Source: Mesorhizobium sp. B4-1-4
GTDB lineage: Bacteria; Pseudomonadota; Alphaproteobacteria; Rhizobiales; Rhizobiaceae
Direction: 5' to 3'
DNA: 64,000 bases
NCBI RefSeq assembly: GCF_006439395.2
Contig: NZ_CP083950.1
Location: 248,001-312,000 of the forward strand
Below the pieces are notes generated by a model, which saw only the letters and a list, made by a program, of their open reading frames with translations, did not search any database and was not told the origin of the DNA. Made by a program: the position numbers and the translations under genes. This document shows, piece by piece, positions 32,995 to 48,791 of the stretch; position 1 is the stretch's first letter, and each line of letters starts with the position of its first letter.

Positions 32995-33121
32995 AGGGAC
33001 CACCTCCACGAGGCGGTCAACCCTTTGTCTGCACATCGTTTTCCGCGGAGGCTGTTCGCGTGCCTTGGAGGCTAATCGCCGCAACCCTTTGATTTTCCGA
33101 CAAACATCCGGGAGGCTTCAC

Positions 33122-35089
33122 GTGAAGGATGACGAGTTCACGCCCAAGCTTGGCAAGATCCGATCGAATGGCTCGAAAGCCCGCAAGCGCTACGCCAACC
33201 GGCTTCGGTCTGCGATCAATCGGGCAGGCGGCAAACACCAGCGTGGCGGCCGCTTCACCGGCAGCCGGGTAGGGCGCGGCGGAGCGGCTGCGGCGTTGCT
33301 CAAGTCACGCGACCGCTATGCCGCGTTTCGCCAGCGCCGGGTGGTGGTCAAGGCGCGCATCGTCAAGCTGGCTGGCAAGGGGCAGGACGGGGCGCGTGCG
33401 CATCTGCGCTACATCCAGCGTGATGGTGTCACGCGCGAGGGTGAGCCGGGCGAGCTCTACGGCGCCGACAAGGATCGCGTCGGCGGAAAAGAGTTCCTCG
33501 ATCGTGCTGATGGCGACCGCCATGAATTCCGCTTCATCGTCGCGCCCGAGGACGGGATAGATTATGACGACCTCAGGCCGCTGACCCGGCGCCTGATGGC
33601 GCAGATGGAAGAAGATCTCGGCACCAAGCTCGACTGGGTCGCCGTCGATCATTTCAACACCGGCCATCCGCACACCCACATCATTGTACGCGGCAAGGAT
33701 GAGCGCGGCGAGAATCTCGTCATCGCGCGTGAGTATATTGCAAGTGGAATCCGCGAGCGGGCGGCCGAGCTGGTCAGCCTAGATCTCGGTCCGCGGACCG
33801 ACCGCGAGATCGAGCTTCGCCTGCGCCAGGAGATGGAGCAAGAACGCTTTACCAGTATCGACCGGCAGCTGCTTAGAATGCGTGATGATGACGGCCTTGT
33901 TTTGCCTGACGGCCGCGATGCCTTTCGCCAGACGCTGCACCAAGGCCGGCTGCGCAAGCTGGAGCGCATGGGGCTGGCCGAGCAGGCAGCTCCGGACCGC
34001 TGGCGCCTTGATGACGGGCTCGAAGCCGCGCTGCGCCACATCGGCGAGCGCGGCGACATCATCAAGACCATGCATCGCGAGCTCACCGGTAAGGGGCTCG
34101 CCCGCAGTGCCGCAGACTATGTTGTCTACGATGTGGGACAGAATGCCGAGCCCGTGGTCGGCCGCGTTGTTGCGCGTGGTCTGGCCGACGAGATCAAAGA
34201 CCGACATTACCTCATCGTCGATTGTGTGGACGGTAAAAGCCATTACATCGACATTGGCAAAGGCGAGGCCACGGAACCGACGCCGGACGGCTGCATCGTG
34301 CGCGTGACGCCGACGAGTACCGAGCCCCGGCAGGTTGACCGAACAGTCGCCGAGATCGCTGCAGCCAATGGCGGGCGATACACCATCGACATTCATCTCA
34401 AGCATGATCCGTCGGCCACCCAACGCTTTGCCGAAACGCATGTTCGGCGTCTGGAAGCGATCCGGCGAGTCCCTGGGGGCGTGGAGCGTGCGCCGGACGG
34501 TACCTGGAGCATCGCGCCCGATCATCTCAAACGCGTGGCTGATTACGAACGCCAACGGGTGAGGGCGGAGCCTGTCGTTGTCGACAAGCTCTCGTCGATG
34601 CCGCTGGAACGGCAGGTCGGTTTCGACGGCGCCACCTGGCTCGACAGTGAGCTGGTTTCAGCAACGCCGGAGCCCTTGCGCAACACCGGCTTCGGCCGTC
34701 AGATCCGGGAGGCGCAAGCCCGCCGGCGGCAGTGGCTGATCGCGCAGGGCCTCGCGCGGGAAGAGCAGGACAGGACCCTCTATCGCGCCAACATGATTTC
34801 TGTCCTGCGTCAGCGCGAGCTGAACCGTGTTGCGGGTCAGCTCGCGGACGAACTCGGTCTCTTTTACGCTGAAGTCCAAACTGGTGAACGAGTCGAGGGC
34901 ACGCTGCGCCGATCGATCGAACTTGCCGGCGGCAAATATGCAGTGGTCCAAAAATCGCGAGAGTTCACACTCGTGCCATGGCGGCCGGTGCTTGACCGAT
35001 ATGTTGGGAAGGAGGTCTCCGGGGTCGTGAGTGGGGATGGAATTTCTTGGACGGTCGGTCGGCAGAGGAGCGGGCCGAGCGTAGCCTAG
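33122..35089 (+). CDS. VirD2-like relaxase (DUF3363)
   Basis: A 655-residue relaxase that nicks the transfer origin and pilots the DNA strand. The N-terminal part carries the three-histidine metal motif HFNTGHPHTHIIVRG, and RAHLRYIQRDGVTREG is typical for the DUF3363/VirD2 type. The C-terminal half is the DUF3363 domain. I take the GTG at 33122, preceded by GGGAGG with good spacing; the open frame goes 19 codons further upstream without support. The oriT would be expected nearby, possibly in the 32995-33121 gap. Confidence 0.88.
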   Translation: MKDDEFTPKLGKIRSNGSKARKRYANRLRSAINRAGGKHQRGGRFTGSRVGRGGAAAALLKSRDRYAAFRQRRVVVKARIVKLAGKGQDGARAHLRYIQRDGVTREGEPGELYGADKDRVGGKEFLDRADGDRHEFRFIVAPEDGIDYDDLRPLTRRLMAQMEEDLGTKLDWVAVDHFNTGHPHTHIIVRGKDERGENLVIAREYIASGIRERAAELVSLDLGPRTDREIELRLRQEMEQERFTSIDRQLLRMRDDDGLVLPDGRDAFRQTLHQGRLRKLERMGLAEQAAPDRWRLDDGLEAALRHIGERGDIIKTMHRELTGKGLARSAADYVVYDVGQNAEPVVGRVVARGLADEIKDRHYLIVDCVDGKSHYIDIGKGEATEPTPDGCIVRVTPTSTEPRQVDRTVAEIAAANGGRYTIDIHLKHDPSATQRFAETHVRRLEAIRRVPGGVERAPDGTWSIAPDHLKRVADYERQRVRAEPVVVDKLSSMPLERQVGFDGATWLDSELVSATPEPLRNTGFGRQIREAQARRRQWLIAQGLAREEQDRTLYRANMISVLRQRELNRVAGQLADELGLFYAEVQTGERVEGTLRRSIELAGGKYAVVQKSREFTLVPWRPVLDRYVGKEVSGVVSGDGISWTVGRQRSGPSVA

Positions 35090-35182: not shown

Positions 35183-35692
35183 CTACAAGCACAGTCGTTT
35201 GTATATATCGGAATTGTAGTGCCTTGCTCCCTCACTTCGGTGTGCTTGGCTCATACGCCGATATTCGTCCGGCCAATTATCAAGCGCAAACCGAATTGCA
35301 CGCATCTTGAAGAGAACATGCAGAACGCATTGGTCACGGATGATGCTTGGACAATTAGTATCCTGCTCACGGCTTTCGTTCAGGTTGGCTGCAACGATCG
35401 GAAGGTCAAGATCGAGCGCAAATTCCAATTCCCAGCGTACGAAACGATAAAGGTTTTTAGTCTTCTCGCCGATCAGCACAATCACCGCCGAAGATTGACG
35501 CATTCGCTCCTTCAAATTCCGCTTCACGTAGTCTTCGCTTTGAGCGCGGCTTGTCATGCTGTCGAGATCGTGTGCATCTAAGAAGTTAAAATCGATCCTC
35601 TCGTTTGCGCGCCAGCCTCTCATGTATCGATAAGCCCAACCATCGGTATCGCCGTCGAAAACCACGTACGTCGGATCTGTATGGGATGTCAT
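35183..35692 (-). CDS. ThsB-like TIR (MTH538/DUF1863-type) protein
   Basis: A 169-residue single-domain protein of the MTH538 TIR-like family, the family of the Thoeris signal-making subunit ThsB. Seen: first strand TYVVFDGDTDGWAYRYM, the DFNFLDAHDLDSM loop, VIVLIGEKTK, and the putative catalytic Glu in RFVRWELEFAL. ThsB-type TIR proteins turn NAD+ into cyclic ADP-ribose-like messengers upon phage infection. The ATG at 35692 lies one base after the SLATT stop, so the two are translated together; an upstream in-frame ATG would overlap that gene. The Glu and loop suggest it is active. Confidence 0.85.
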   Translation of the reverse strand: MTSHTDPTYVVFDGDTDGWAYRYMRGWRANERIDFNFLDAHDLDSMTSRAQSEDYVKRNLKERMRQSSAVIVLIGEKTKNLYRFVRWELEFALDLDLPIVAANLNESREQDTNCPSIIRDQCVLHVLFKMRAIRFALDNWPDEYRRMSQAHRSEGARHYNSDIYKRLCL

Positions 35693-35693
35693 C

Positions 35694-36560
35694 TCAGGCC
35701 CCCTGCTGTTGACGTGCCGCCCACTGAGTATGTTCGCGAGAAAACGCAAGCTCGGCTTCGTTGATCGCTGCGGAAAACGCAGCGGGGGTTGCAGCGTCCT
35801 TGACTAGCCCCTGCGTTAGACCGATCTCGTGAGCTGTAAGGGTATACGCGGCGGCCAGTTCATTGAATTTCTTTATTTGCGTCCACCCAATTGCGGCTGA
35901 TGCGAGCACGACCAATGGCTCGGTCGGCCAGCCTTCCGATGACGGATCAACGACGCGTGCCAGAATGAACGCCAGACCGAGTGCGTAAGCCGCGCACGAA
36001 ATGATGAGCCAACGCCGTGCTGCAGCCTCATTTACCGATGCCTTTTTCTCGTACCATTCCCGCTGATCTGCAATGCGATTCTTAAGGTAGAACTGGCGCC
36101 GTTCCTCCAAGCCGCTCTCACGCATTTCCTGCATTTCGTCAGGAAGCTGGTCTCCCGTCGATCTGAGACCGACAAGAGCGTCGCTAACAGAGTGATTGGC
36201 CTTCAGCACGTCCCTAAGCAAGTCACGAAAATCGCGACGGGCGTCGCTTGACTTGGCATCGTCGAACGGCTCGGCGCGCATGGCGAACCGCCAGGCTAGT
36301 GTCTTCACGGATTCCGCGAGCGCCCGCGCCTGGTACCACGTCCGCTCGGGTTTTTTCATGGAGCGGTAGACCATCACCATCATCGAAAATGCGAAGAATC
36401 CGGCGTAGGCAGCAAAGTAGGCACGGCTAGAACTCCAACCGAGGGAAAACATAGCGGTTACCAGCAGCAGAAAATATTCAAGGCGTACCAACGCCAGAAA
36501 CCACCACTGGCTTCTGTTGGAGGCGTCGTCCGCGCTTTCGTACAAAACAGGGTACTTCAT
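35694..36560 (-). CDS. SLATT-type (DUF4231-like) membrane effector
   Basis: A 288-residue membrane protein with two pairs of helices (about residues 21-43 and 47-66, and 184-203 and 213-229). Each is linked to the soluble SLATT signature: WYQARALAESVKTLAWRFAM after the first pair, and RQFYLKNRIADQREWYEKKA before the second. SLATT proteins (SMODS and SLOG associating 2TM) are predicted nucleotide-gated pores that kill the infected cell. It sits 42 bases after the poly-Gly TIR gene and one base before the ThsB-like gene. The natural reading is a membrane effector answering a TIR-made signal. Confidence 0.82.
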   Translation of the reverse strand: MKYPVLYESADDASNRSQWWFLALVRLEYFLLLVTAMFSLGWSSSRAYFAAYAGFFAFSMMVMVYRSMKKPERTWYQARALAESVKTLAWRFAMRAEPFDDAKSSDARRDFRDLLRDVLKANHSVSDALVGLRSTGDQLPDEMQEMRESGLEERRQFYLKNRIADQREWYEKKASVNEAAARRWLIISCAAYALGLAFILARVVDPSSEGWPTEPLVVLASAAIGWTQIKKFNELAAAYTLTAHEIGLTQGLVKDAATPAAFSAAINEAELAFSREHTQWAARQQQGA

Positions 36561-36602: not shown

Positions 36603-37073
36603 TCACTTCAGTTCATTCGCCAGCTTGCTCCAAGGCACCACCTTTATTCCGGGCTGAGCAAGCCATGTTGGGATTGCAGCTGACGAAGCTGGACCTGCAT
36701 GGGTCGCGATTACGGTCTTTCCGAGTGCTAGGCTCTGTTCGACTTCCCACCGGACCCAACGGCTCTGCGCCGTGCTCTCGGAGACGTATACCACAGTGGT
36801 CGAACACCGTTTTATCCTTTCGGTGATCTTACCCTTTATGTAGTCCGCCCGTTCGCTGTCATAGGGCTCGCGAACTGAGTGGTCGTTGAATTCGATGTCG
36901 CTGTTTTCGTTCTTGGCTTGACCGCGCAGTAGATTCACCTCAGCCATGTCTTCGGTCGCAAAGCTGATGAAGACGTTCCGTTTCCCGCCAGCGAGGGCGG
37001 CTTTCGCCTTCTCTTCGAGAGATCGAACGTCTCCCAAGCGATTCCAATTTCCTCCTCCTCCGCCACCCATCAT
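36603..37073 (-). CDS. TIR (MTH538-type) protein with poly-glycine N-terminus
   Basis: Up to 156 residues. The first start overlaps the QueC stop (ATGA); a second ATG follows directly, giving MGGGGGGNW. After methionine removal the protein would begin with six glycines. Residues ~32 onward form a TIR domain: NVFISFATEDMAEVNLL, DIEFNDHSVREPYDS, TTVVYVSESTAQSRW and the putative catalytic Glu in VRWEVEQSLALGK. Direct coupling to a QueC-like gene makes the glycine N-terminus a candidate site for attachment of a deazaguanine. The nearby AGGAGGAGG is coding and has no close downstream start, so it is not just a ribosome-binding site. Confidence 0.85.
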   Translation of the reverse strand: MMGGGGGGNWNRLGDVRSLEEKAKAALAGGKRNVFISFATEDMAEVNLLRGQAKNENSDIEFNDHSVREPYDSERADYIKGKITERIKRCSTTVVYVSESTAQSRWVRWEVEQSLALGKTVIATHAGPASSAAIPTWLAQPGIKVVPWSKLANELK

Positions 37074-37663
37074 TCAGCCCTTCCGAATTTGAATTCGTTG
37101 CACGCAATGCACTCGCCGCAGGCCTTTTCGCCGCCTTCGTGGCAGGAATAGGTGCCCACTATCCCCTTCAGTTGGGCAAGTTCCACAACGTCGATTTTGT
37201 GAAACTGCGAGAGTGGCGCGAGGACTTTGATGGTTCGGCCCATGCTGCGTTCGATCATTCTCTCCGCCTCCAAGAGAAAGGCTGATGTTTGATCCGGGAA
37301 AAGACTGGTTTCCTCATGGAGCAGGCCGATCGACACGGCATCGGCATTCTTCTGAAAGGCGTAGGCGGCAGCAACAAGAAGGAAGAGTAGGTTGCGACCT
37401 GGGGTGAACGCATCGCTGACGATATGCAGCGTGCTGTCCGTCAAACCTGATCGAACGAGCGATCCGAAGCCTGATAAGTCCGCAATCTTCGGCTCTGGGA
37501 GACCGAGCTTCACCATCGCTCCTTTGCACGCGGCAAGTTCCCTATCTCTTGACCGTTGTCCGTAGTCAATGAAGAGGGGATATTGAGCGAGACCCTCCTC
37601 CCGAGCCAAGGCTGCGACCAGGGTGGAGTCGAGGCCGCCCGATACCAAAGTCACGATGCTCAT
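37070..37663 (-). CDS. QueC-like 7-cyano-7-deazaguanine synthase (type IV CBASS Cap9-like)
   Basis: A 197-residue PP-loop ATPase of the QueC family: SGGLDSTLV near the N-terminus (residues 8-16), and the zinc-binding cysteines C174, C182, C185 and C188 in CHEGGEKACGECIACNEF. QueC makes preQ0 from carboxy-deazaguanine with ammonia. In a defence operon with TGT and OGG it matches the ancillary QueC of type IV CBASS rather than housekeeping queuosine synthesis; no queD, queE or folE lies here. The start is the ATG at 37663, overlapping the OGG stop (ATGA); the longer frame lacks homology. It also overlaps the following TIR start. Confidence 0.9.
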   Translation of the reverse strand: MSIVTLVSGGLDSTLVAALAREEGLAQYPLFIDYGQRSRDRELAACKGAMVKLGLPEPKIADLSGFGSLVRSGLTDSTLHIVSDAFTPGRNLLFLLVAAAYAFQKNADAVSIGLLHEETSLFPDQTSAFLLEAERMIERSMGRTIKVLAPLSQFHKIDVVELAQLKGIVGTYSCHEGGEKACGECIACNEFKFGRAE

Positions 37664-38349
37664 ATCTTGGCCTCTTCCTGCCTTTTTGCTACTCTCATTA
37701 CAATCCAGATTGCCCAATCCAAAATGCCCACGGGGAATCCGAGCTCACGAGCATGGCCACGCATACTTTCTTCGTCACGCTCGTATTGCTTCATGGTGGT
37801 GATCGGCCTCGACTGCACTGTTCGCAGGCCGATCAGCTGCATGTAGTCCAACACGTGCCGATCCAGGATGGCGAGCTCGTAACTAACTCCCACATTTCTC
37901 AGAAACATGCTCGCCTGTTTTGGACCAAGGCCGGGGGCCGTTTCGACCAACCAATGCCGCATCGCATCAGGGCTCTCGGACATCGTCAAAAGAGACCCGA
38001 GCGTTCCGAACTGGTCGGCTATGCGCCGTTTCGTGACTGCCAATTGCCGAGCACGAGCAACAGGAAATCGATAACTCCGCCCGCCACCCGGACTCCTGAG
38101 TATCGTGATCAGCTGATCGGTGAGCTCTCCTTCAAGATCCCCACCATGCAGAATTCCGTGAGCTTCGATCGCAGAGGCCGCCTCGGCGGCGAGCACGTAC
38201 GGAACTTGACTGCTCAAAAGGCACGCTGAAAGTTCCCACCACAACTGGCGCTCACTGGTTGCTTTGGAATTTCCTGCGATTCGACTCTCGATCTCCGGAC
38301 AGATGGCGCAGACGGCCGTGGTGAGCTCTCGAGCAGTGAAGGCTTTCAT
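37660..38349 (-). CDS. OGG-like HhH-GPD DNA glycosylase
   Basis: A 229-residue glycosylase with the helix-hairpin-helix/GPD hallmark: APGLGPKQASMFLRN with the candidate nucleophile Lys144, then the Asp163 in ELAILDRHVL. The N-terminal SSQVPYVLAAEAASAI helix pattern also fits. Enzymes of this type cleave the base-sugar bond of damaged purines such as 8-oxoguanine. Members of this particular set accompany QueC and TGT in type IV CBASS. It overlaps both neighbours by 4 bases (ATGA), so expression is strictly linked. A role in removing deazaguanine or an activity on a nucleotide signal is conceivable. Confidence 0.87.
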   Translation of the reverse strand: MKAFTARELTTAVCAICPEIESRIAGNSKATSERQLWWELSACLLSSQVPYVLAAEAASAIEAHGILHGGDLEGELTDQLITILRSPGGGRSYRFPVARARQLAVTKRRIADQFGTLGSLLTMSESPDAMRHWLVETAPGLGPKQASMFLRNVGVSYELAILDRHVLDYMQLIGLRTVQSRPITTMKQYERDEESMRGHARELGFPVGILDWAIWIVMRVAKRQEEAKI

Positions 38350-39743
38350 CGGAACAAACCTTCTACCTCTCGGTTCAGTTGCTGCGCGGCTGCCTTTCCG
38401 ATTCGCTCAGCGATGAAGGCTTCCAGGCGGCTGTTCGAAATAGCGCTCCGGAGTTCCCGCATAAAGGCGGTGTAGTAGTCGATGTTGTGGAAGGCGACCT
38501 TACCGGCGAAGTCGATCTTGTCGTCAAGGAAAGCTGCGCGCGTGACTGGAGAGTCCGCCACTCCCGTCTGAAAGTTGAAAAAGTCATAGTGCTGGAAGTG
38601 GTGAAGCCGGTCGTGCTGCATGTCTGCGACAACCCGGCACCACTCAAGGCCATCGAAAGTGTCCGCGCCCGCGGCCGTCAAAATCGCGATGCTCCAAGGG
38701 TTACCGGTGCCGAGGAGGTGAACCGGCTGATAAAACGGAAGCTGGCCAAGTTTAGCTCTAATCGCCATCATCGTTCTGCAGCGCTGGAGAAGGCCAGCCC
38801 CAAGCTCACGCTCAGGAATCCCGATCAACTCTGGCTGCAGTTCTTGCGCGACCGCGAAAGCGGTATTAATGAGCATCTGAATATCATGGCCCCCCGATGC
38901 CTTTTTCGGCGCATGGACGACCGGCAGAGTCTTCAAGTTTGTCGCTGATCGATCACGCTCGACGGCGTCTATGACCGATCGCGCAGCGACCCGTGGTCTT
39001 TTGCTTGGCCGCATATCGTCAAAACAAAAGATCCAGTCGTATGAGGTACCGCTCAACGCGGCGGCCAGATCGGAAGGGTTCCACCGCTTGTTGGTAAGCC
39101 TTGAGGCTTCGTAGTTGCCTGAATCTACGAGCACAAATCCACCATTCTTACGGTATTCCTCCAATGCTGATCTCAATTGTTCCGGCTTGCGTCGCGGCAC
39201 CAGGTCCCAGGCTGAGACTAGCAGGGTAGGATATCGAGAAACGTTCAGCGCCTTTACAGCTTCGCTCGGCTTTAGCTGTGTCTCGAACGAAGAAGTAGAC
39301 AGGAAAAGACAGGGCAGATCCAATCCGTTCAGGGTCGCCGGTCGCCTTGGTCGATCACGAGCCGGCACAACCGCGTTAATCCGATTGACCAGCGTCCTCA
39401 AATCCGGATGATCGAACCGCTCATCCCATTCAGACAGATCGCTGTTAGAATAGCCTCCGAATCCATACGCTGCATCGCTTCCGTCCAATGTGACCGAGAC
39501 CACGGGTACGTCGTTCTTCTCCGCGAGGCCCACTTCGTCACGCACCGTATCCTTCCACCGAGATGCCTTGGACCAGAAGACGAGCACGCAGCTTGCCTTC
39601 TTAATTTCCTCTTCAATCTCGGTGGCAAAGCGATGGCGGATCATTTGGTCCCACCACACGCTCCAGGTTTGGGAAAAGAAATCGAATAACTTTGCTACCT
39701 GTCTTCGATCCTCTTTGGCATAAATCAAATAGATATCAGCCAC
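38346..39743 (-). CDS. TIR-TGT fusion protein
   Basis: A 465-residue two-domain protein. Residues 1-125 are a TIR domain: DIYLIYAKEDRRQVAKLF, WSVWWDQMI, CVLVFWSKASRWKDT and a putative catalytic Glu70 in VRDEVGLAEKN. Residues ~140-465 match tRNA-guanine transglycosylase: VDSGN (207-210; DSGG in TGT), GIPERELG, LLGTGNPWSIAILTAAGADTFD with the candidate nucleophile Asp near 361-364, and AFHNIDYYTAFMRELRSAI, which corresponds to the HNLxYYxxLMxxIR block. The zinc cysteines before that His are missing, as in several non-tRNA TGTs. It is the first gene of the four-gene coupled set. I know of no described TIR-TGT fusion. Confidence 0.85.
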   Translation of the reverse strand: MADIYLIYAKEDRRQVAKLFDFFSQTWSVWWDQMIRHRFATEIEEEIKKASCVLVFWSKASRWKDTVRDEVGLAEKNDVPVVSVTLDGSDAAYGFGGYSNSDLSEWDERFDHPDLRTLVNRINAVVPARDRPRRPATLNGLDLPCLFLSTSSFETQLKPSEAVKALNVSRYPTLLVSAWDLVPRRKPEQLRSALEEYRKNGGFVLVDSGNYEASRLTNKRWNPSDLAAALSGTSYDWIFCFDDMRPSKRPRVAARSVIDAVERDRSATNLKTLPVVHAPKKASGGHDIQMLINTAFAVAQELQPELIGIPERELGAGLLQRCRTMMAIRAKLGQLPFYQPVHLLGTGNPWSIAILTAAGADTFDGLEWCRVVADMQHDRLHHFQHYDFFNFQTGVADSPVTRAAFLDDKIDFAGKVAFHNIDYYTAFMRELRSAISNSRLEAFIAERIGKAAAQQLNREVEGLFR

Positions 39744-39828: not shown

Positions 39829-40971
39829 CTAAGCACTCCAACCGGATAAGTACAGCGCCGTTGAAAAGTCCTCGGTTGTTTCGCAGTTTGCGAAATTTGC
39901 TAAAAGGGGTTCCAAGGATCTAGCTTCCACTAATGCGATGCATCGCACACCCTCGTCGTTGAGCCGCTTGGCGGTTCGGATCCCTTCCTGGTCAATGCCG
40001 TCGACGAGCATAAGAACCGTCGAGAGATGCATCCTCTCTAACTCGACCGCTTCCAGGGCCGGGCAAATTGCATTCAAACCGAGTTCCGCCAGGCCAAATC
40101 GAGCCTCTTCGATTGTGTAGCGCCGTCCCAAAGTATCTATCGCCCCCAACAGAAGCACGTTTCCGGTGTCGCTGATGGGATGCCTTTCGACCGCTTCGCT
40201 CGGATTGGGGGGAGTGAGCGGGGCATGAGGATTGTCGCAATAGGACGCGACGTGCATGGACGCTAAATAGGCGGCATCGTAAGGCGTGAGTTTGGCCTCG
40301 GCCCAATGATGCGCGAACGCTGCGGTGAATATGTCGCCTGTTCCAATTTTAAATATGCGTTTGCTTAGGAAGGCCGGGACGGTAGACGGCAATGAACCGC
40401 GGGAAAAGACGAGGGCACCTTTGACACCCCTCTTTACGATGACGCACGCGACCCGCTTGTCCTTGAGCATCGCGTCGGCCGCATCCGCCAGGCTGCCGGT
40501 TCGAGCTGCGGCGCGGAGTTCACGCTCGTTTAGCACCAGAGCCAATTCGCTCGCACGGGAACCATTGTCGTGAAAAGGAACGAAATTTTGAGCACTCTGG
40601 GGGTCGTAAATTGCTCTATCGGCCGCAACGATCGCGTCGCCCTCGATAAAACCGAACCGCAGCACGGCATCGCCTTCCACCTTGATAGCCGGCATCCGCT
40701 TGATTTCCGCTAATGGCGGCTGCAGAAGAGGCCGAGACAGCGGGTGAAAATAGGCAAATACGATTCCGGTATGGCGACCGGCGAAGGTTGCCTGGATAGC
40801 CAGATCCTGTTTGACTCGATCGAAGCTCCCCTCGCTTTCGAAATAGCAATGCAGCCGGCTGTTAGGCGATAGGTCAACAAGCGCGCGAGCCGCCCGACCG
40901 CCGGAGCCCATAACCGCATCCCAGGACGGGTGAAGGCACAGCTCCCGATAGAGACCGCCAGCGATTTCCAT
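39829..40971 (-). CDS. PfkB-family kinase fused to a nucleoside-deoxyribosyltransferase-like domain
   Basis: A 380-residue fusion. The N-terminal ~285 residues are a PfkB/ribokinase-type kinase: MEIAGGLYREL as first strand, MGSGGRAARAL for substrate, and IGTGDIFTAAFAHH with the catalytic Asp. The C-terminal ~100 residues (VLLLGAIDTLGRRYTIEEA, VLMLVDGIDQEGIRTA) resemble nucleoside 2-deoxyribosyltransferases. The open frame could start at a TTG at 41091, but the ATG at 40971 has CGGAGAACC upstream and begins exactly at strand one. It lies 85 bases upstream of the TIR-TGT gene on the same strand and may be part of the system. Confidence 0.78.
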   Translation of the reverse strand: MEIAGGLYRELCLHPSWDAVMGSGGRAARALVDLSPNSRLHCYFESEGSFDRVKQDLAIQATFAGRHTGIVFAYFHPLSRPLLQPPLAEIKRMPAIKVEGDAVLRFGFIEGDAIVAADRAIYDPQSAQNFVPFHDNGSRASELALVLNERELRAAARTGSLADAADAMLKDKRVACVIVKRGVKGALVFSRGSLPSTVPAFLSKRIFKIGTGDIFTAAFAHHWAEAKLTPYDAAYLASMHVASYCDNPHAPLTPPNPSEAVERHPISDTGNVLLLGAIDTLGRRYTIEEARFGLAELGLNAICPALEAVELERMHLSTVLMLVDGIDQEGIRTAKRLNDEGVRCIALVEARSLEPLLANFANCETTEDFSTALYLSGWSA

Positions 40972-41112
40972 ATCCGGTTCTCCGCGCAAGTTTTCCGCAG
41001 GAAAGATATCCTTAGAGGATGCGCAAATAAGCCAGTGGAATAGCGACCCGGCAAGATGCCATGGCGCGCATTGTTGTGTAGGTTGATCCAACTAGGAATG
41101 ATCTGGGTTCAT

Positions 41113-42357
41113 ATGCAGACCGTAGAGCACAATGTTGATGTCCGCCCAGTATGTTTTGTCGTGATGGGTTTTGGCAAAAAGACTGACTATGAAAGTGGTC
41201 GGACGCTCGACCTAGACGCGACATTTGAAGCCATAATCAAGCCGGCGGCTGAACGAGCAGGCCTGCGGGCAATCCGGGCTGTCGATATCAATGGAAGTGG
41301 TGTCATTGATGTCTCCATGTACGACCTGCTCCTGCGCGCGGACGTGGTTGTGGCCGACATTTCCACCGGTAACGTGAATGCCGTTTATGAGCTGGGCGTG
41401 CGACATGCGCTTCGGCCCAACACGACGGTGATTATGAAGGAGGACCAGGGAAGGCTATATTTCGATCTCAACCATATCAACACGTTTCACTATAAGCACC
41501 TTGGTGAGGACATCGGCAACAGAGAGGCCATTCGCGCTAGCAATGAGCTGGCGGCGCTCATCGTCAAAGCGATGGCGTCCACAACCCCAGACAGCCCCGT
41601 CTACACGTTCTTGCCGAAGCTACGGCGCCCTCGGCTTTCGGACGAACAATACGCCGAGTTGCTTGACGAGGCAGAAGAACATCACGAGGTTTTAAGCAAC
41701 GTTTTGCGCGAAGGCCGGGAGGCCTTCGATCGAAGCGATATGCAAGCGGCAGCAGCCGCTTTTGCCAGAGCCTGCGAACTGAAGCCTGAGGAAGCGTCAT
41801 TTCGACAGCAATATGCTCTCGCGACTTACAAAACCAAACTTCCGACCGAGGAAGAAGCCTTGCTGAACGCTCTCCGGATTATAGACCAACTCCAACCTGA
41901 AGATTCCAACGATCCTGAGACGCTTGGGATCACCGGCGCGATCTATAAACGCCTCTGGTTGCTCAGAAAAGATCGCGTTCATTTGGATAAAGCATTGCGT
42001 CTCTATGGACGGGGATTCGAAGTCAGGCGCGATTATTACAACGGCGAGAATTTAGCCACATGTTTTGACATGAGGGCGGCGGAGCAAAGTGATCCAGATG
42101 AAATCCTTTTTGATCGCATGAGCGCTAAGAAGACAAGAATTTCCCTTGTTGATATTCTATCGTCGATGATCGCCGAGCCATCGTTCCAGGAGAGATCCGA
42201 CCGAAAATGGGTTTATGCAACCCTTGCAAACACAATGTATGCGCTTGAGCGGCGAGCCGAGGGGTCCATCTACGAGGAGCTATTCCGGGCGTTGAATCCT
42301 GCTGGTTGGGAGATTTCGACGTTTGAGGGCGTTAGGTCGCTATCCATACGATCCTGA
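41113..42357 (+). CDS. TIR/deoxyribosyltransferase-like domain plus TPR protein (DUF4071, TPR-S type)
   Basis: A 414-residue protein divergent from the kinase-fusion gene. The N-terminal ~150 residues have a Rossmann-like nucleotide-processing fold related to TIR/NDT domains (VCFVVMGFGKK, DLLLRADVVVADISTGNVNA, YELGVRHALR). The rest consists of TPR-like helices (AAAAAFARACELKPEEASFR) and a C-terminal part seen in MAP3K TRAF-binding (DUF4071) homologues. Such TPR-S proteins are described near TIR and nucleotide-based conflict genes and could act as sensor or scaffold. The start is uncertain; ATG at 41098 is an alternative. Confidence 0.72.
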   Translation: MQTVEHNVDVRPVCFVVMGFGKKTDYESGRTLDLDATFEAIIKPAAERAGLRAIRAVDINGSGVIDVSMYDLLLRADVVVADISTGNVNAVYELGVRHALRPNTTVIMKEDQGRLYFDLNHINTFHYKHLGEDIGNREAIRASNELAALIVKAMASTTPDSPVYTFLPKLRRPRLSDEQYAELLDEAEEHHEVLSNVLREGREAFDRSDMQAAAAAFARACELKPEEASFRQQYALATYKTKLPTEEEALLNALRIIDQLQPEDSNDPETLGITGAIYKRLWLLRKDRVHLDKALRLYGRGFEVRRDYYNGENLATCFDMRAAEQSDPDEILFDRMSAKKTRISLVDILSSMIAEPSFQERSDRKWVYATLANTMYALERRAEGSIYEELFRALNPAGWEISTFEGVRSLSIRS

Positions 42358-42632: not shown

Positions 42633-42935
42633 TCACTTTTCGGATAATTTATTGTTCGGATAAAAAAGCTTGAGAAAATGTTGTAACTTTTGCGAACTTC
42701 CATCCTTGTTGAAAACTTGGGCAAAAACGCCGAACCCTCCCCACCCGGACGAGTGAAGGCCAAATTTGGACGCGCGGTCCTCGACGGTACGCACGGGATT
42801 CGCAAAAGTCGGATGCAGCGTGTAGATGACTTTTTCGATACCATCAAGTTCCGCCGGAGTACCCTCGACCCATATCGACCAACGCCACCAGTCATCTCCC
42901 TGATATTTACTCTTCTGCCTGATGCGGATGGTCAC
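42633..42935 (-). CDS. Prokaryotic YEATS (pYEATS) domain protein
   Basis: A 100-residue protein made of a single pYEATS domain: WWRWSIWVEGTPAELDGIEK, VIYTLHPTFANPVRTVEDR, and GWGGFGVFAQV. YEATS folds bind acylated peptides in eukaryotes; bacterial versions are predicted sensors in TIR-linked conflict systems. It starts with GTG three bases after the TIR-gene stop, so the two form a pair. The region is more AT-rich than the transfer core. Confidence 0.75.
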   Translation of the reverse strand: MTIRIRQKSKYQGDDWWRWSIWVEGTPAELDGIEKVIYTLHPTFANPVRTVEDRASKFGLHSSGWGGFGVFAQVFNKDGSSQKLQHFLKLFYPNNKLSEK

Positions 42936-42938
42936 TTG

Positions 42939-43622
42939 CTATCCCCTTAGATGAACGCCGATGGCGTTGGTGCTCTCATAAGCCGAAACCCAGCTGCGTC
43001 CCTGGTGTTCGATTACCACTTGCACGAGAGCATCTTTTGGAACGCGCTTAGCCTCGACGAAGAGCCCTTGCCCGATCGGGGTGACAGACGTCGGTTGAAG
43101 AGGAAGCTCGTCGCCGTTCAAGCGGACCCGATAAAAGCATCGGAATTCGGGCTTACGATGGATCGGCCAAATCTCCTGGACGCGTTCGTCAGGCATAAGC
43201 TGCAAAGTGACGCTGATATTGCGGTGCCATTCATGCAGGAATTCAGCAATCCTGACCAAACATTCGTCTCGTTTTTCTTCCTCGTAACTGATGCGCTGGT
43301 GACCGCCGGCAATCCCCTCTTGAGGATCAACTCCTTGTTCACGGATTTCCACCGCTTGTATGGGTACCGCTAGGGCCGTCGCAATTTCGTCGAGAACCCA
43401 ACGATGGCTCGTCCACATTCCATCGGCGATCTCGACCCTGCGCGTCGCGAATCCAAGCAAGGCAGACGACGTGCGAATATTGTTCCTCACAGTCTCGGTT
43501 ATGACGCCGTCAATGATTTCGCCGCTGACGACCTCGTCGCCGAATGAGCGGATTAGACGATAGACAAGGTCCGTTATCCATCTGTCTCGCTCGTTGAATC
43601 CATGCGCGACGAATATTCGCAT
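42939..43622 (-). CDS. TIR-like domain protein paired with pYEATS
   Basis: A 227-residue protein. The N-terminal ~130 residues resemble a TIR domain: RIFVAHGFNERDRWITDLVY, a nucleotide-type loop GDEVVSGEIIDG, SALLGFATRR, and WVLDEIATALA with a candidate Glu. The C-terminal ~90 residues are beta-rich (CFYRVRLNGDELPLQ, LVQVVIEHQGRSW) and may bind a partner. With the pYEATS gene 3 bases away it forms a two-gene unit. I assign TIR on pattern, not on full family signature. Confidence 0.65.
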   Translation of the reverse strand: MRIFVAHGFNERDRWITDLVYRLIRSFGDEVVSGEIIDGVITETVRNNIRTSSALLGFATRRVEIADGMWTSHRWVLDEIATALAVPIQAVEIREQGVDPQEGIAGGHQRISYEEEKRDECLVRIAEFLHEWHRNISVTLQLMPDERVQEIWPIHRKPEFRCFYRVRLNGDELPLQPTSVTPIGQGLFVEAKRVPKDALVQVVIEHQGRSWVSAYESTNAIGVHLRG

Positions 43623-43788
43623 ATCAATTCTTTCTAGCGTTTGGACTCGAACTGACCAAGGCCGGAAGGCGCATACTCAAAATCCTTCTCATTTTCCCTT
43701 GCTTCGATAGCGACCGCATTTGTTACCTACAGCGACTGGCGAGAGGATCACTGCACGCTGTTACAACGCTGCACCACTGAACACTGGT

Positions 43789-44895
43789 TCAATCTCGAAG
43801 CTCCAGAACCTTTACCTCTGCAGGACGGATTACTTTTTCACAGAGGTCAGCAAGCAATTGCTCCTGGTCAGCATAGCGATGAACCGCCAAAAACGACGGC
43901 CGGGTTCGATAAAAGTCGAACATGCCCGGCTCCTCCTGTGTTGCCAGAATTATTGATTGTACAGGCACCGAGGGGAGGTCCGGTACAATTGCACGCAGCT
44001 CTTGCAACACAGATTTGGCATCAGAAATATCTGCAACCACAAACCTCGCCATCCTTGCTAGCAGCGTGATTGTTTCGTCTGTATCGCGACCCCTAGGCCT
44101 CTCAAAGTCAAATAAGATCGGAAGGTAATCACGCTCGCGCAGTTTCTCGCGAAGAGCGTCGAGGACGGCCTTTCGCTCACCCGTGAAACGACCAAGGATC
44201 AGCACCACCTTTGAAGTAATCGTGTCGATCACGTCCCGGATCTTGTTATTGCTGAGCATTAGGTAAATGAACTGCGCGACCTCGATGTTGTCGACGGTGA
44301 TCTTGGGCTCGTTGTCTGGCGCTATCACCAAGTTCTGCTGCTTAGCCCCCTCTAGTTTCAGACCCCAAGCAGATATGCCGTAGATCCTGCAGCCGGAAAG
44401 ATCTGCATCCGTCAGGTCAGTGTCGACCAGGACTGCAGATTCGAGACACGCCCCGCGCAAGTCCGCTCCGCGCAGGCATGCGTCGCGGAGGTTCGCTGAG
44501 TAAAGGTTGGCCTTGCGGAGGTCCGCGCCGTTGAGGTTTGCGGGGAAGAGGTCCGCCGCGGCGAGGTTCGCCCCGCGGAGATCGGCCCCACTTAGGTCGG
44601 CCAGGTAGAGCCTCGCGCTACTAAGGTTAGCTCCGCGCAAGTCCGCTCCGTCCAGACGCGTCCCGCGGAGAATGGCCTCGGTGAGGTTCGCCCCCCTGAG
44701 ATACGCTCCGCTCATGTTTGCCCCACTGAGGTTCGCCTCGCGTAAGTCCGCCCCATTCAAAATCGCTCCGGTAAGGTTCGCTGCCCGGAGCTGCGCACCC
44801 GCGAGGTCCGGGCTGATGCTGGCGTTCACCTCATGCCACGCGTTCCAGGCGGCCACGCCCTGGTTGAGCAATGCGACGTGCTGGTCGTTAGCCAT
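43789..44895 (-). CDS. Pentapeptide-repeat protein with TIR-like C-terminal domain
   Basis: A 368-residue protein. Residues ~30-170 are some 25 tandem A(D/N)LxxA-type pentapeptides forming a right-handed quadrilateral beta-helix. The last ~145 residues (VVLILGRFTGERKAVLDALR, FVVADISDAKSVLQELRAIV) have a TIR/NDT-like fold also seen in other conflict proteins. The function is unknown; a sensor or effector is plausible. It is monocistronic, with a 164-base gap to the patatin gene. Confidence 0.8.
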   Translation of the reverse strand: MANDQHVALLNQGVAAWNAWHEVNASISPDLAGAQLRAANLTGAILNGADLREANLSGANMSGAYLRGANLTEAILRGTRLDGADLRGANLSSARLYLADLSGADLRGANLAAADLFPANLNGADLRKANLYSANLRDACLRGADLRGACLESAVLVDTDLTDADLSGCRIYGISAWGLKLEGAKQQNLVIAPDNEPKITVDNIEVAQFIYLMLSNNKIRDVIDTITSKVVLILGRFTGERKAVLDALREKLRERDYLPILFDFERPRGRDTDETITLLARMARFVVADISDAKSVLQELRAIVPDLPSVPVQSIILATQEEPGMFDFYRTRPSFLAVHRYADQEQLLADLCEKVIRPAEVKVLELRD

Positions 44896-45059
44896 GGAAC
44901 GCTACCCTCTCTGCCCGACGAGCCAAAAGGCTCGTCGTCAACCCGATATTCTCCGACTGTTTGGCCAATCCAAAGGCGGGCCGAAAAGCGTCTAACGACA
45001 GGTTAGGCTCATTTCACTGCCAAGGTTGGCGTCGATTCATTGAAAGGAAATCGATATCC

Positions 45060-46202
45060 TCAGAAGCCGATGAAATGTTCCTTCTTTACCCTTTCGGCGG
45101 CCTTCTTGCCAACTGCATGCAGTTCGGGAATTCCGTCAATCGCGTCCATTCTTTGAACCGTCTCAGGCCGGACATTCTCTAGCCCTAAGGCATCCAAACC
45201 TGCTCGGGTCAGTTCTGCATTGTAGCGCACGTACGCGAACAGCTTATTTTCTTTCGGGAGAGGCCCAACGCTGTCGACGAGATTTCCAATCTCTCGGTCA
45301 ATTGTCTGGCCTGCACGGCACTCCCCAAAGATACGGCAAAGTAGGTCTTGCTCGTTGGAAGCAGCAAACATAAGTGCCGATGGAATCGTTGTTGCGTTGA
45401 AGAGCAAGTTCATATCATTAGGATTAAGGCCAGAGCGAACATCCGGACAGGTGCCGGTACCAACCGAAACTATTAACATCTGATCGGCTCCGGTCCGCCA
45501 ACGGGCTTCCGGATTGCGACTCCAGTAACGATCAACAGTAGCCATCAAAAACATTTGGAATGTGGGATTGTTATACATAGTAACTCCGCCATCGACGAAG
45601 ATAAAATGCCTATCGGTGTCAGAGATGCCTGGAATAATAATCACCTCAGGTGGAAAGTAAGTTGGGGCCGCCGTGCTGGCGCGGACTAGTTGCCAAAGCG
45701 GAAGTTTGCCGTTGTCATCGGACCGATCTGGATTATTATAGTACCCGAAGGGATTATTTGACAGCGGCCATGGCGAATCGGTGGTTGCGTTGCGCATGAC
45801 TAGCAACAGTAGGCTTTGCAATTTATCTGAGCCTAATGTGGTCTCACTACCAAAAACCTCCTTTAATTTAACTGCTAGCGGCTCAGAGTCGAACTTGTAT
45901 TTTAGACGATCAAGAACATTAGATCTGACGAACATCTGAGCGCCGCAATTTTCATAAAAAGATTGGATATCTCTTACAGATAATCCCATGGACAATCCGG
46001 CAGCTATAATTCCGCCAGTGCTGGTACCAGCAATGTAATCGAAGTAGTGTGATAAGCGAAAGCTGTCACCATCGATATCTGGCCGCAGAAGGTTTTCCAA
46101 TTTTAGGAGGATTTCCAGCGCCAGTACGCCTCGAATTCCGCCGCCGTCTATCGAAAGTAACTTCTTTTTACCTTGCCGAGTTATACGATCAATCAGAGGC
46201 AT
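45060..46202 (-). CDS. Patatin-like phospholipase
   Basis: A 380-residue lipase of the patatin family: oxyanion-hole loop SIDGGGIRGVLALE, nucleophile elbow GTSTGG with Ser61, and the dyad Asp204 in VDGGVTMYNNP. Patatins of this kind serve as CBASS membrane effectors (CapV), degrading phospholipids after activation by a cyclic dinucleotide. No cyclase lies next to it, so whether it belongs to the neighbouring systems is open. The sequence is AT-richer than the transfer core. Confidence 0.87.
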   Translation of the reverse strand: MPLIDRITRQGKKKLLSIDGGGIRGVLALEILLKLENLLRPDIDGDSFRLSHYFDYIAGTSTGGIIAAGLSMGLSVRDIQSFYENCGAQMFVRSNVLDRLKYKFDSEPLAVKLKEVFGSETTLGSDKLQSLLLLVMRNATTDSPWPLSNNPFGYYNNPDRSDDNGKLPLWQLVRASTAAPTYFPPEVIIIPGISDTDRHFIFVDGGVTMYNNPTFQMFLMATVDRYWSRNPEARWRTGADQMLIVSVGTGTCPDVRSGLNPNDMNLLFNATTIPSALMFAASNEQDLLCRIFGECRAGQTIDREIGNLVDSVGPLPKENKLFAYVRYNAELTRAGLDALGLENVRPETVQRMDAIDGIPELHAVGKKAAERVKKEHFIGF

Positions 46203-46760
46203 ATCAAACCTTTACTTGCTTAAGGCTTAGAGATCGGATGCTGGAAGACAAAAAATATCAGTAAAACCTCCGCCACTGGTGCTTTGGTGTCCGAACCGTA
46301 CGGGAACTGTTGCGCGACGCCCTTCTGAAGATAAGCCGGGATCGGCAAAGCCTGCAAGTCGATGTTTGCGTTAAGTTTAGAATGGATATTCCCAAAGGGG
46401 GGTCTGTAAGGCTTTGCGGCTTTCATCCATTGGTATTGCTTGAACCGATGCCGCATTCGGCTACAACGCGCACAGCTAGGACGCTGGATTGGTTAAGGTG
46501 GCACCTTTCAGGTGAGACAAGGGGGCATTCAGGCCCCGGTCAAGCCTCGAAAATGCACGGCGGGACGACAATGTTCTGCGCATTGCCGGCTGCGCGATTG
46601 CTACATGCAGGACATGGCCGGTTCTTGGATACCCAGTGGCCCCGACCGCCATCCATCAACTAGGTCCTTCGCCACACTAGATCGCATATAAGCGGCGTTT
46701 CCGTTCAGACCGCAAAGCGCGATGCTTGCTCAAACCCTCCCGGAGGAACCGAGCGAGCCA
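46203..46760. other. Gap before traG without a recognisable gene
   Basis: 558 bases between the patatin and traG starts. Open frames on both strands lack homology. The start region of traG with its GGAGGAA (46742-46748) forms the right end; a promoter for traG must lie here but I cannot pinpoint it. Confidence 0.5.
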
Positions 46761-48791
46761 ATGACCCCCACAAAGCTATTGATTGGGCAAATCGCCGTAG
46801 TATTCGCCACCGCTATTCTCGGAGTATGGACGGCAACGCAATGGAGCGCCTACGCGCTGGACTATCAGCAGCAGCTTGGCACACCATGGTTCCTCGCGGT
46901 CGGCCGGCCGATCTATAAACCGTGGAAACTGTTCGAATGGTGGTATCATTTTGATGCCTATGCGCCTGAGGTCTTCGACAAGGCAGGCATGCTTGCCGGC
47001 GCTAGCGGATTCTTGGGCTGCGCTGGTGCAGTCGCGGGTTCGCTCTGGCGCGCGCGGCAGCGTGGACTGGTTACCACCTATGGCTCCTCACGATGGGCCG
47101 TGAAGCAGGAAATCGAAAAAGCAGGGCTGTTTCGACCGGCCGGTGTTTTCCTCGGCGAGCTTAAGGATCGATATCTGCGCCATGACGGGCCGGAGCACGT
47201 CATGGCCTTTGCGCCGACACGTTCGGGCAAGGGCGTCGGATTGGTTGTTCCAACCCTGCTTTCCTGGACCGGCTCGGCTGTCATCCATGACATCAAGGGC
47301 GAGAATTGGCAGCTAACTGCCGGCTGGCGGTCGAAGTTCTCGCACTGTCTGTTGTTTAATCCAACCGATCCGAGGTCGGCGCGCTACAACCCGCTGCTGG
47401 AGGTGCGCAAAGGTCCTAATGAGGTCCGCGACGTCCAGAACATCGCTGACATTCTTGTCGATCCTGAGGGCGCGCTCGAGCGGCGCAATCACTGGGAAAA
47501 GACCAGCCATTCCCTGCTGGTTGGCGCCATTCTGCACGTGCTCTACGCCGAAGAGGAAAAAACACTTGCCCGCGTCGTCACGTTCCTGTCGGACCCGCAA
47601 CGCTCGTTTGCCGCAACACTTGGGCGGATGATGACGACCAACCACGTCGGAACGGCGGACAGGCCTCAAGTGCATCCGGTCGTGGTCTCGGCGGCCCGTG
47701 AGGTGCTGAACAAGTCAGAGAACGAGCGTTCGGGCGTGCTCTCGACTGCCATGTCGTTTCTCGGCCTCTATCGCGATCCCACCGTGGCGGCGACAACATC
47801 GGCCTGCGATTGGCGCATTGCTGACCTCATGGATGCACAACTCCCAATGTCGCTCTATCTGGTGGTGCCGCCATCGGACATCTCGCGAACCAAGCCGCTG
47901 GTGCGACTGGTGCTCAATCAGATCGGCCGGCGGCTCACCGAGCGGCTGGAGGGCGATCCGAAGAAGAGCCGCAAGCATCAACTGCTGATGATGCTCGACG
48001 AATTTCCGGCACTCGGGCGCCTCGACTTCTTCGAGACCGCGCTCGCCTTCATGGCCGGCTATGGCATTCGCGCTTACCTGATCGCGCAATCCTTGAACCA
48101 GATCTCGAAAGCTTACGGCGAGAACAACGCCATTCTCGACAACTGCCATGTCCGCATTGCTTTTTCTTCCAATGACGAACGCACTGCCAAGCGCATTTCG
48201 GACGCGCTCGGTACCGCCACGGAACTCAGATCCATGCGCAACTATGCCGGCCATCGGCTGGCCCCCTGGCTTTCGCATGTCATGGTCAGCCGCCAGGAGA
48301 CCGCCCGGCCGCTGCTGACGCCGGGCGAGGTGATGCAATTGCCGCCATCGGACGAACTAGTGCTGGTTTCGGGGCTGCCGCCGATCCGTGCCAAAAAACT
48401 GCGCTACTATCAGGATCAAAATTTCACCGAACGGGTGCTGCCCGCGCCGGTGTTGCGTGACGGTCCCTACGCGGACTGCCCTGCATCGCGCCCGGACGAT
48501 TGGACTGGGCAGGTGCGCAGCGTCGATCGCCGTCTTGTTGCCGACGGCGAAAGCGCCGGCGCCACGATCGAAGACGAGGGCGGTGTCCAACAGCAGCGCC
48601 ATCCCGGGTTGCCTGAAGAACCGACCGACGTCACTCAGGAGCCCGACCAGGAAGATCTTCTCAAGCCTGCCGACGATGATAGCGAGACGATCGCTGATAA
48701 GCGCGTCATGGACCGGATTTCCACCGCGACACGCGCCTACGGCATCAATGAGGGTAGGGGCGACGAGAAGGACATCGTCCCCGGCTTCTAA
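46761..48791 (+). CDS. traG: TraG/VirD4-type coupling protein
   Basis: A 676-residue type IV coupling ATPase that links the relaxosome to the mating channel. Two N-terminal helices (IGQIAVVFATAILGVW and a second near residues 70-95) precede the Walker A APTRSGKGVGLVVPTLL, and the Walker B-like LLMMLDEFPALG follows. The start ATG at 46761 (MTPTKLLI) is typical for the family; an upstream ATG at 46722 remains possible. It starts the second half of the transfer region. Confidence 0.92.
   Translation: MTPTKLLIGQIAVVFATAILGVWTATQWSAYALDYQQQLGTPWFLAVGRPIYKPWKLFEWWYHFDAYAPEVFDKAGMLAGASGFLGCAGAVAGSLWRARQRGLVTTYGSSRWAVKQEIEKAGLFRPAGVFLGELKDRYLRHDGPEHVMAFAPTRSGKGVGLVVPTLLSWTGSAVIHDIKGENWQLTAGWRSKFSHCLLFNPTDPRSARYNPLLEVRKGPNEVRDVQNIADILVDPEGALERRNHWEKTSHSLLVGAILHVLYAEEEKTLARVVTFLSDPQRSFAATLGRMMTTNHVGTADRPQVHPVVVSAAREVLNKSENERSGVLSTAMSFLGLYRDPTVAATTSACDWRIADLMDAQLPMSLYLVVPPSDISRTKPLVRLVLNQIGRRLTERLEGDPKKSRKHQLLMMLDEFPALGRLDFFETALAFMAGYGIRAYLIAQSLNQISKAYGENNAILDNCHVRIAFSSNDERTAKRISDALGTATELRSMRNYAGHRLAPWLSHVMVSRQETARPLLTPGEVMQLPPSDELVLVSGLPPIRAKKLRYYQDQNFTERVLPAPVLRDGPYADCPASRPDDWTGQVRSVDRRLVADGESAGATIEDEGGVQQQRHPGLPEEPTDVTQEPDQEDLLKPADDDSETIADKRVMDRISTATRAYGINEGRGDEKDIVPGF

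What the first reader, a model, noticed from the sequence alone, without database searches (positions are those of the whole stretch)
37070..39743. TIR-TGT, OGG, QueC and TIR genes coupled: type IV CBASS enzymes without a CD-NTase
Four genes overlap by ATGA at each junction (39743 to 36603): a TIR-TGT fusion, an OGG-type glycosylase, a QueC-like synthase and a small TIR protein. QueC, TGT and OGG are the ancillary enzymes reported for type IV CBASS, where they accompany a cGAS-like cyclase. Here no cyclase is present in the island; TIR domains, which can make NAD-derived messengers, occupy its place. This suggests an immune system that joins deazaguanine chemistry with TIR signalling, which I have not seen described.
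Basis: partly seen in the sequence, partly recalled or inferred. Interest (0 to 1): 0.95.

Follow-up and report, generated by a model that had tools for sequence, protein, structure and literature searches.

The report
Deazaguanine-tagged TIR immune cassette
A gene cassette found in many bacteria pairs relatives of the enzymes known to stick a guanine-like base onto an immune cyclase with a small TIR protein that carries the same glycine-rich start and no cyclase, so bacteria likely use this base tag to control TIR signalling against viruses as well.

Summary
In detail: TIR-TGT, OGG, QueC and a small TIR are joined by three ATGA overlaps (39743-36603), and no CD-NTase (SMODS) is found in the complete 6.27 Mb genome. 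The cassette recurs: of 81 loci examined (window plus 80), TGT, QueC and TIR sit together in 77, with OGG in 75. In 50 genomes tested, no SMODS match falls inside the fetched locus.

Nothing was tested at the bench. The host lacks QueD and a canonical QueC, so the tag's source is unexplained. I found no description in the papers I could search.

The parts
38346..39743 (-). TIR-TGT fusion: N-terminal TIR, C-terminal Cap10-like TGT domain; proposed tag reader
37660..38349 (-). OGG-type HhH glycosylase, role unknown
   Evidence: Pfam; PDB relatives N-glycosylase/DNA lyase 3FHG and others; K144 in 76 and D163 in 75 of 78 rows (that these are the catalytic residues is recalled)
37070..37663 (-). 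QueC-like enzyme, proposed writer of the tag
   Evidence: Pfam; hits QueC 2PG3, 3BL5 and Cap9 9NTO; SGGxDS and [YF]xQ(x)5E in 77 of 77 cassette copies; tree
36603..37070 (-). small ThsB-family TIR with MGGGGGGNW start (second ATG), proposed tagged protein
   Evidence: WxxWE in 76 of 77 copies; profile hits ThsB1 structures 6LHY, 9B7D
37062..37070 (-). ATG-GGT-GGC start region: predicted Gly acceptor of the tag after Met removal
   Evidence: sequence; xGG start in 75 of 77 loci
39829..40971 (-). PfkB/ribokinase-family kinase with an extra C-terminal domain, group A companion
   Evidence: Pfam; aligned start in relatives; model pLDDT 91.8; ribokinase-fold matches; beside the cassette in 36 of 46 group A loci and 0 of 31 group B
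35694..36560 (-). SLATT_3 plus SLATT_1 membrane protein, likely effector
   Evidence: Pfam; SLATT within 3 kb in 28 of 31 group B and 21 of 46 group A loci
35183..35692 (-). second ThsB-family TIR, no MGG start
   Evidence: Pfam; PADLOC ThsB 2.2e-54; control row
41056..42357 (+). TPR-S protein, divergent, frequent group A neighbour
   Evidence: Pfam TPR-S 2.4e-24; in the fetched stretch of 37 of 46 group A and 4 of 31 group B loci

Best explanation
The TGT-OGG-QueC-TIR cassette, which holds no cyclase gene, likely encodes an antiviral system in which the Cap9-like QueC is predicted to attach 7-deazaguanine to the N-terminal glycine of the small TIR and the Cap10-like TGT domain would hold the tagged tail. 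On infection the TIRs would use NAD to make a nucleotide signal, and the SLATT protein would open the membrane. Shown from sequence and models: gene order, the tail, conserved residues of all four proteins, the fold match to Cap10, the lack of a detectable cyclase. Inferred: the tagging reaction, reading of the tag, the NAD product, the SLATT step and the antiviral role. Unknown: the trigger, and the roles of OGG, PfkB and TPR-S.
Against: No biochemistry. The own genome has no PTPS/QueD, no QueE by one model and no second strong QueC, so no visible source of CDG, though 45 of 50 other hosts have PTPS. By sequence the window QueC scores higher against canonical QueC structures (2PG3 5.9e-18, 3BL5 8.3e-13) than against Cap9 (8.6e-12). 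Two motifs named for Cap9 occur in part in canonical QueCs: the Cys spacing in 3 of 6 and YxQ(x)5E in 1 of 6 that I checked. Foldseek's lead of Cap10 over canonical TGTs is small (9.3e-14 against 6.0e-13). L052 starts MAGSGGG and L012's TIR is broken. SLATT is within 3 kb in only 21 of 46 group A loci. Many of the 77 loci are close kin.
Confidence: 0.6

Rival explanations
1. The QueC-like enzyme modifies the TIR tail with a group other than 7-deazaguanine, as may hold for QatC, and the TGT domain recognises that other group.
For: The own genome has no PTPS and no canonical QueC but has Tgt and a YhhQ-type transporter, so CDG may be lacking; QatC's reaction is unresolved in PMC13279940.
Against: The aromatic and Asp residues that hold the deazaguanine in Cap9 are kept in form (F122 in 76, D124 in 78 of 78 rows, Cap9 counted), unlike the Thr/Thr of QatC (PMC13279940); 45 of 50 other hosts have PTPS.
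Confidence: 0.2
2. QueC, TGT and OGG act on nucleic acids (modified bases in DNA or tRNA), and the TIR proteins are an ordinary Thoeris-like partner next door.
For: QueC, TGT and OGG families are known for base chemistry; the OGG keeps its candidate catalytic Lys and Asp; the window QueC resembles canonical QueC structures most by score.
Against: The TGT domain matches Cap10 above canonical TGTs and has Cap10's FDGL(T/E)W where the own canonical Tgt has FDCVMPTRAGRHG; the MGG start is confined to the TIR beside QueC; no QueD or QueE gene in the island (families).
Confidence: 0.12
3. The tag is a lock, not an arming signal: tagged TIRs are held inactive by the TGT domain, and loss of the tag (perhaps through OGG or phage interference) releases them.
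For: An OGG with conserved candidate catalytic residues accompanies reader and writer in 75 of 77 loci; nothing in the sequence tells arming from locking.
Against: In type IV CBASS the tag is required for defence (PMC11996544 abstract), which favours arming.
Confidence: 0.15

Closest known systems
Type IV CBASS (Cap9 QueC-like, Cap10 TGT-like, CdnD cyclase, 2TM effector)
   Same: QueC-like and Cap10-like proteins in one operon, a partner protein with an MGG-type start, often a 2TM/SLATT gene.
   Different: No cyclase; a TIR carries the tail; in 46 of 77 loci the TGT is fused to a second TIR; group A adds PfkB and often TPR-S.
Qat (qatABCD)
   Same: QueC-family enzyme beside a protein with a conserved N-terminal glycine motif, MGTS in QatB (PMC13279940).
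   Different: No QatA, QatB or QatD found by PADLOC among 12 window proteins scanned; QueC is short and keeps the deazaguanine-type base site.
Thoeris (ThsB TIR)
   Same: The small TIR and the downstream TIR are ThsB-family; the small TIR profile hits ThsB1 cyclic ADP-ribose synthase.
   Different: No ThsA found among 12 window proteins scanned; QueC, TGT and OGG are not part of Thoeris (recalled).
TIR-SLATT gene pairs
   Same: TIR beside a SLATT 2TM protein; SLATT is predicted to be a membrane effector regulated by ADP-ribose derivatives (PMC9503650, passage).
   Different: That paper's main text has no QueC, deazaguanine or TGT (term search).

Membership tests
Type IV CBASS | CD-NTase (SMODS) in the operon | tested here: not met
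   0 matches in the own genome; 9 of 50 genomes match somewhere, none inside the fetched locus
Type IV CBASS | QueC-like Cap9 | tested here: met
   PADLOC type IV QueC model 8.3e-26; tree groups cassette QueCs with two Cap9s away from six canonical QueCs, 98/95, midpoint-rooted, long branches; but higher score to canonical QueC structures
Type IV CBASS | TGT-like Cap10 | tested here: met
   PADLOC TGT model 1.7e-19; 9NTN ranked first
Type IV CBASS | partner with an N-terminal glycine that is deazaguanylated | tested here: inconclusive
   MGG start present in 75 of 77 loci, on a TIR rather than a cyclase; the modification itself was not testable
Type IV CBASS | membrane (2TM) effector, one of the effector types | tested here: met
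   SLATT in 28 of 31 group B and 21 of 46 group A loci within 3 kb; SLATT families differ from that of the reference locus
Thoeris | ThsB-type TIR | tested here: met
   PADLOC ThsB models
Thoeris | ThsA effector | tested here: not met
   no ThsA model hit among 12 window proteins scanned; other window proteins not scanned
Qat | QatA, QatB and QatD partners; Thr/Thr base site in QatC | tested here: not met
   no Qat model hit among 12 window proteins; base site is Phe-Pro-Asp
Canonical queuosine synthesis locus | QueD and QueE in the genome or beside QueC | tested here: not met
   no PTPS in the own genome; QueE tested with one model only, none

The most novel reading that the evidence does not exclude
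A separate class of immune system in which protein deazaguanylation controls TIR enzymes: writer (QueC), reader (TGT, often itself fused to a TIR) and tagged TIR form a module that has swapped with the cyclase of type IV CBASS. In hosts without their own deazaguanine pathway, such as this one, the base would have to come from outside, for example from phages that make 7-deazaguanine for their DNA, so that the tag itself reports infection.
Probability: 0.5. Interest if true: 0.93.

Novelty: new variant of a known kind. Interest (0 to 1): 0.86.

Why it matters
Protein deazaguanylation was reported in 2025 on one kind of target, the type IV CBASS cyclase, and proposed for QatB. If the same writer and reader work on a TIR, the modification becomes a general switch that can be plugged into unrelated signalling enzymes, and it links two large branches of prokaryotic immunity. 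It makes direct predictions: a mass shift on the first glycine of a small TIR, its capture by a TGT domain, and a TIR product that acts on a SLATT membrane protein.

Tried and rejected
Canonical queuosine locus: rejected; no PTPS in the genome, no QueE by the one model tried, and a Cap10-like TGT domain.

Hidden cyclase: looked for with SMODS in the own genome and in 50 others, and with PADLOC on 12 window proteins; none in the loci. Cyclases that SMODS cannot see are not excluded.

Cap9 motifs as proof of membership: they looked decisive, but canonical QueCs share part of them, so I rely on the tail, the fold and the tree. Identity does not settle it either: one cassette QueC is 27.6% identical to Cap9 9NTO, about as far as canonical QueCs (27-31%), while the Pseudanabaena Cap9 is 37.4%.

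My TIR-domain profile drifted while iterating and hit lone TGTs too, so I split the groups by length of the TGT ORF, with L043 (cut) and L045 (split) put in group A by hand.

Other collections: no match to the Pseudanabaena Cap10 in phages; no near match of the cassette DNA in E. coli, a search that sees only close DNA; 15 plasmid records match the TIR-TGT, 13 over most of it; one virus-labelled contig carries the cassette (L086).

The SMODS gene of G001 (L087) has no cassette gene in the 12 kb stretch taken. In one search I counted divergent TPR-S genes with too narrow a limit (4 of 37) and recounted places.

Papers: searches gave no listing that looked like a TIR-QueC-TGT cassette. Most hits were seen as listings only. 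Subscription papers, the full deazaguanylation paper and the original CBASS classification could not be read.

Full report
What is there. On the minus strand, 39743-36603, four genes follow each other with ATGA overlaps: a TIR-TGT fusion, an OGG-type glycosylase, a QueC-like enzyme and a small TIR. The small TIR opens ATG ATG GGT; relatives start at the second ATG, so the protein likely begins MGGGGGGNW. Upstream, 85 bases away, is a PfkB-family kinase whose likely start is 40971 (most relatives align from MHIAGG or a close variant). Downstream are a SLATT_3 plus SLATT_1 protein and a second ThsB-family TIR. A TPR-S gene diverges from the kinase.

Where it sits. GC is 0.52-0.57 over 36-48 kb, against 0.64-0.66 over 28-34 kb and 0.62-0.64 over 48-58 kb. 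The stretch lies between a relaxase-type gene (33065-35089; DUF3363, with Relaxase just below its cut-off) and a TraG-type coupling gene (46722-48791), so it is probably cargo of a conjugative element (inference).

Is the set conserved? I aligned 26 TIR-TGT proteins and fetched 79 genome loci and one virus-labelled contig (80 kept of 89 relatives in the genome scan). With profiles built from the window's genes, 77 of 81 loci (window included) have TGT, QueC and a TIR together, and 75 have OGG. L058, L059, L072 and L073 have no detected QueC: three reach contig ends, one is a remnant. Two architectures appear. Group A (46 loci) has the TIR-TGT fusion; PfkB is within 1.5 kb in 36, TPR-S is in the fetched stretch in 37, SLATT within 3 kb in 21. 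Group B (31 loci) has TGT alone; SLATT is within 3 kb in 28, upstream on the same strand within 600 bases in 27; PfkB in 0, TPR-S in 4. Records are labelled as several proteobacterial groups and also Clostridiales, Nitrospira, KSB1, Acidobacteria, Planctomycetota, Bacteroidia and Micrarchaeota, many of them MAGs. Many loci are close kin and not independent. In a class-wide sample, 4 of 385 genomes, the own one included, match the TIR-TGT alignment; the other three also have QueC and OGG beside it. So it is widespread but patchy. Pairwise distances of the four proteins correlate 0.82-0.91 over 72 loci (nine of 81 left out: L012, L043, L045, L058, L059, L062, L072, L073, L083), as for a unit that travels together.

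The tail. In type IV CBASS, Cap9 joins 7-carboxy-7-deazaguanine to the N-terminal glycine of the cyclase, which starts MGGS, and Cap10 binds the tagged N-terminus (PMC11996544: abstract, all that is held; PMC13279940: parts 1-3 of 6 read). The small TIR here has that kind of start. An in-frame start codon followed by two glycines, from 13 bases before to 22 bases after the QueC stop, is present in 75 of 77 loci. L012 has a broken TIR ORF and L052 reads MAGSGGG. Controls: 0 of 42 other ORFs hit by the TIR profile in the same loci; 85 of 2807 other ORFs of 100 aa or more have any in-frame xGG start in their first 100 codons. Of the 120 relatives listed (of 1519 found), 116 start MGG and one MMGG. 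A reference type IV locus on a Pseudanabaena plasmid reads QueC, TGT, cyclase, 2TM effector. Its cyclase begins MGGSGGGFFSNSDI, and 102 of 121 sequences (itself and the 120 listed relatives) begin MGG. Group B tails such as MGGSSGGGLFSSDI (L074) look much like it.

The writer. All 77 cassette QueCs keep SGGxDS, [YF]xQ(x)5E and Cx7CxxCxxC; the base site reads Phe-Pro-Asp (F122 76, P123 75, D124 78 of 78 rows, Cap9 counted). PMC13329287 (parts 1-2 of 5 and passages) lists such motifs for Cap9, but parts of them occur in canonical QueCs too: the Cys spacing in 3 of 6, YxQ(x)5E in 1 of 6. By score the window QueC is nearer to canonical QueC structures than to Cap9. A tree of 28 sequences (20 of the 77 cassette QueCs, 2 Cap9, 6 canonical) parts the canonical ones from the rest with 98/95 support; it is midpoint-rooted and has long branches. 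That paper found a CD-NTase next to 67% of its Cap9 cluster and its text does not mention TIR, so some of the remaining third may be this cassette (inference).

No cyclase. PF18144 gives no match in the own genome. In 50 genomes (50 of the 80 loci given; one call takes 50), 9 have a match somewhere. Two others, G014 and G036, could share a contig with the locus but lie more than 20 kb from it. The model detects the reference type IV cyclase at 42.7 bits.

Mechanism. The most economical reading is a swap: writer, reader and glycine tail as in type IV CBASS, with a TIR in place of the cyclase. SLATT proteins have been predicted to be membrane effectors regulated by ADP-ribose derivatives (PMC9503650, passage), which fits a TIR signal. 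PfkB, a ribokinase-fold protein, might act on a ribose-bearing product; this is a guess. OGG keeps its candidate catalytic residues, with no known role here.

What does not fit. The own genome has no PTPS/QueD, no QueE by one model and no other strong QueC, but it has a canonical Tgt and a YhhQ-type transporter. It looks like a salvager without CDG. 45 of 50 other hosts have PTPS, some by weak matches. Either the base is imported, or it comes from an infecting phage, or the enzyme uses another substrate.

Verdict. By definition it is not CBASS, because no cyclase was found, and not Thoeris, because no ThsA was found in the proteins scanned; it works most like type IV CBASS. I found no description in the searchable papers, but much of the field's literature could not be read.

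Noticed in passing
own genome G000: No PTPS/QueD, no QueE by TIGR04508 and no canonical QueC, but a canonical Tgt and a YhhQ-type transporter: a likely queuosine-precursor salvager that nevertheless carries a QueC-dependent island.
   Followed up: partly
window 42633-46202: A second cluster: a pYEATS protein (42633-42935), an unassigned protein (42939-43622), a pentapeptide-repeat protein (43789-44895) and a CapV-like patatin phospholipase (45060-46202; NCBIfam CBASS_lipase 110 bits, below its cut-off), again without a cyclase in the genome.
   Followed up: partly
window 33065-35089 and 46722-48791: The defence cargo sits between a relaxase-type gene and a TraG-type coupling gene, so it is probably carried by a conjugative element.
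   Followed up: partly
L086: A contig labelled viral in IMG/VR carries the whole group A cassette with SLATT, laid out as in the Pseudomonas loci.
   Followed up: no
L045:6769-10741: In this Pseudomonas locus the TIR-TGT gene is in two pieces about 2.4 kb apart, as if split by an insertion.
   Followed up: no
window 39829-40971, about residues 265-380: The PfkB-type kinase has a conserved C-terminal domain that no library named.
   Followed up: no
window 41056-42357 and loci of group A: TPR-S proteins are found in the fetched stretch of 37 of 46 group A loci at varying places and orientations, which hints at a functional link.
   Followed up: partly
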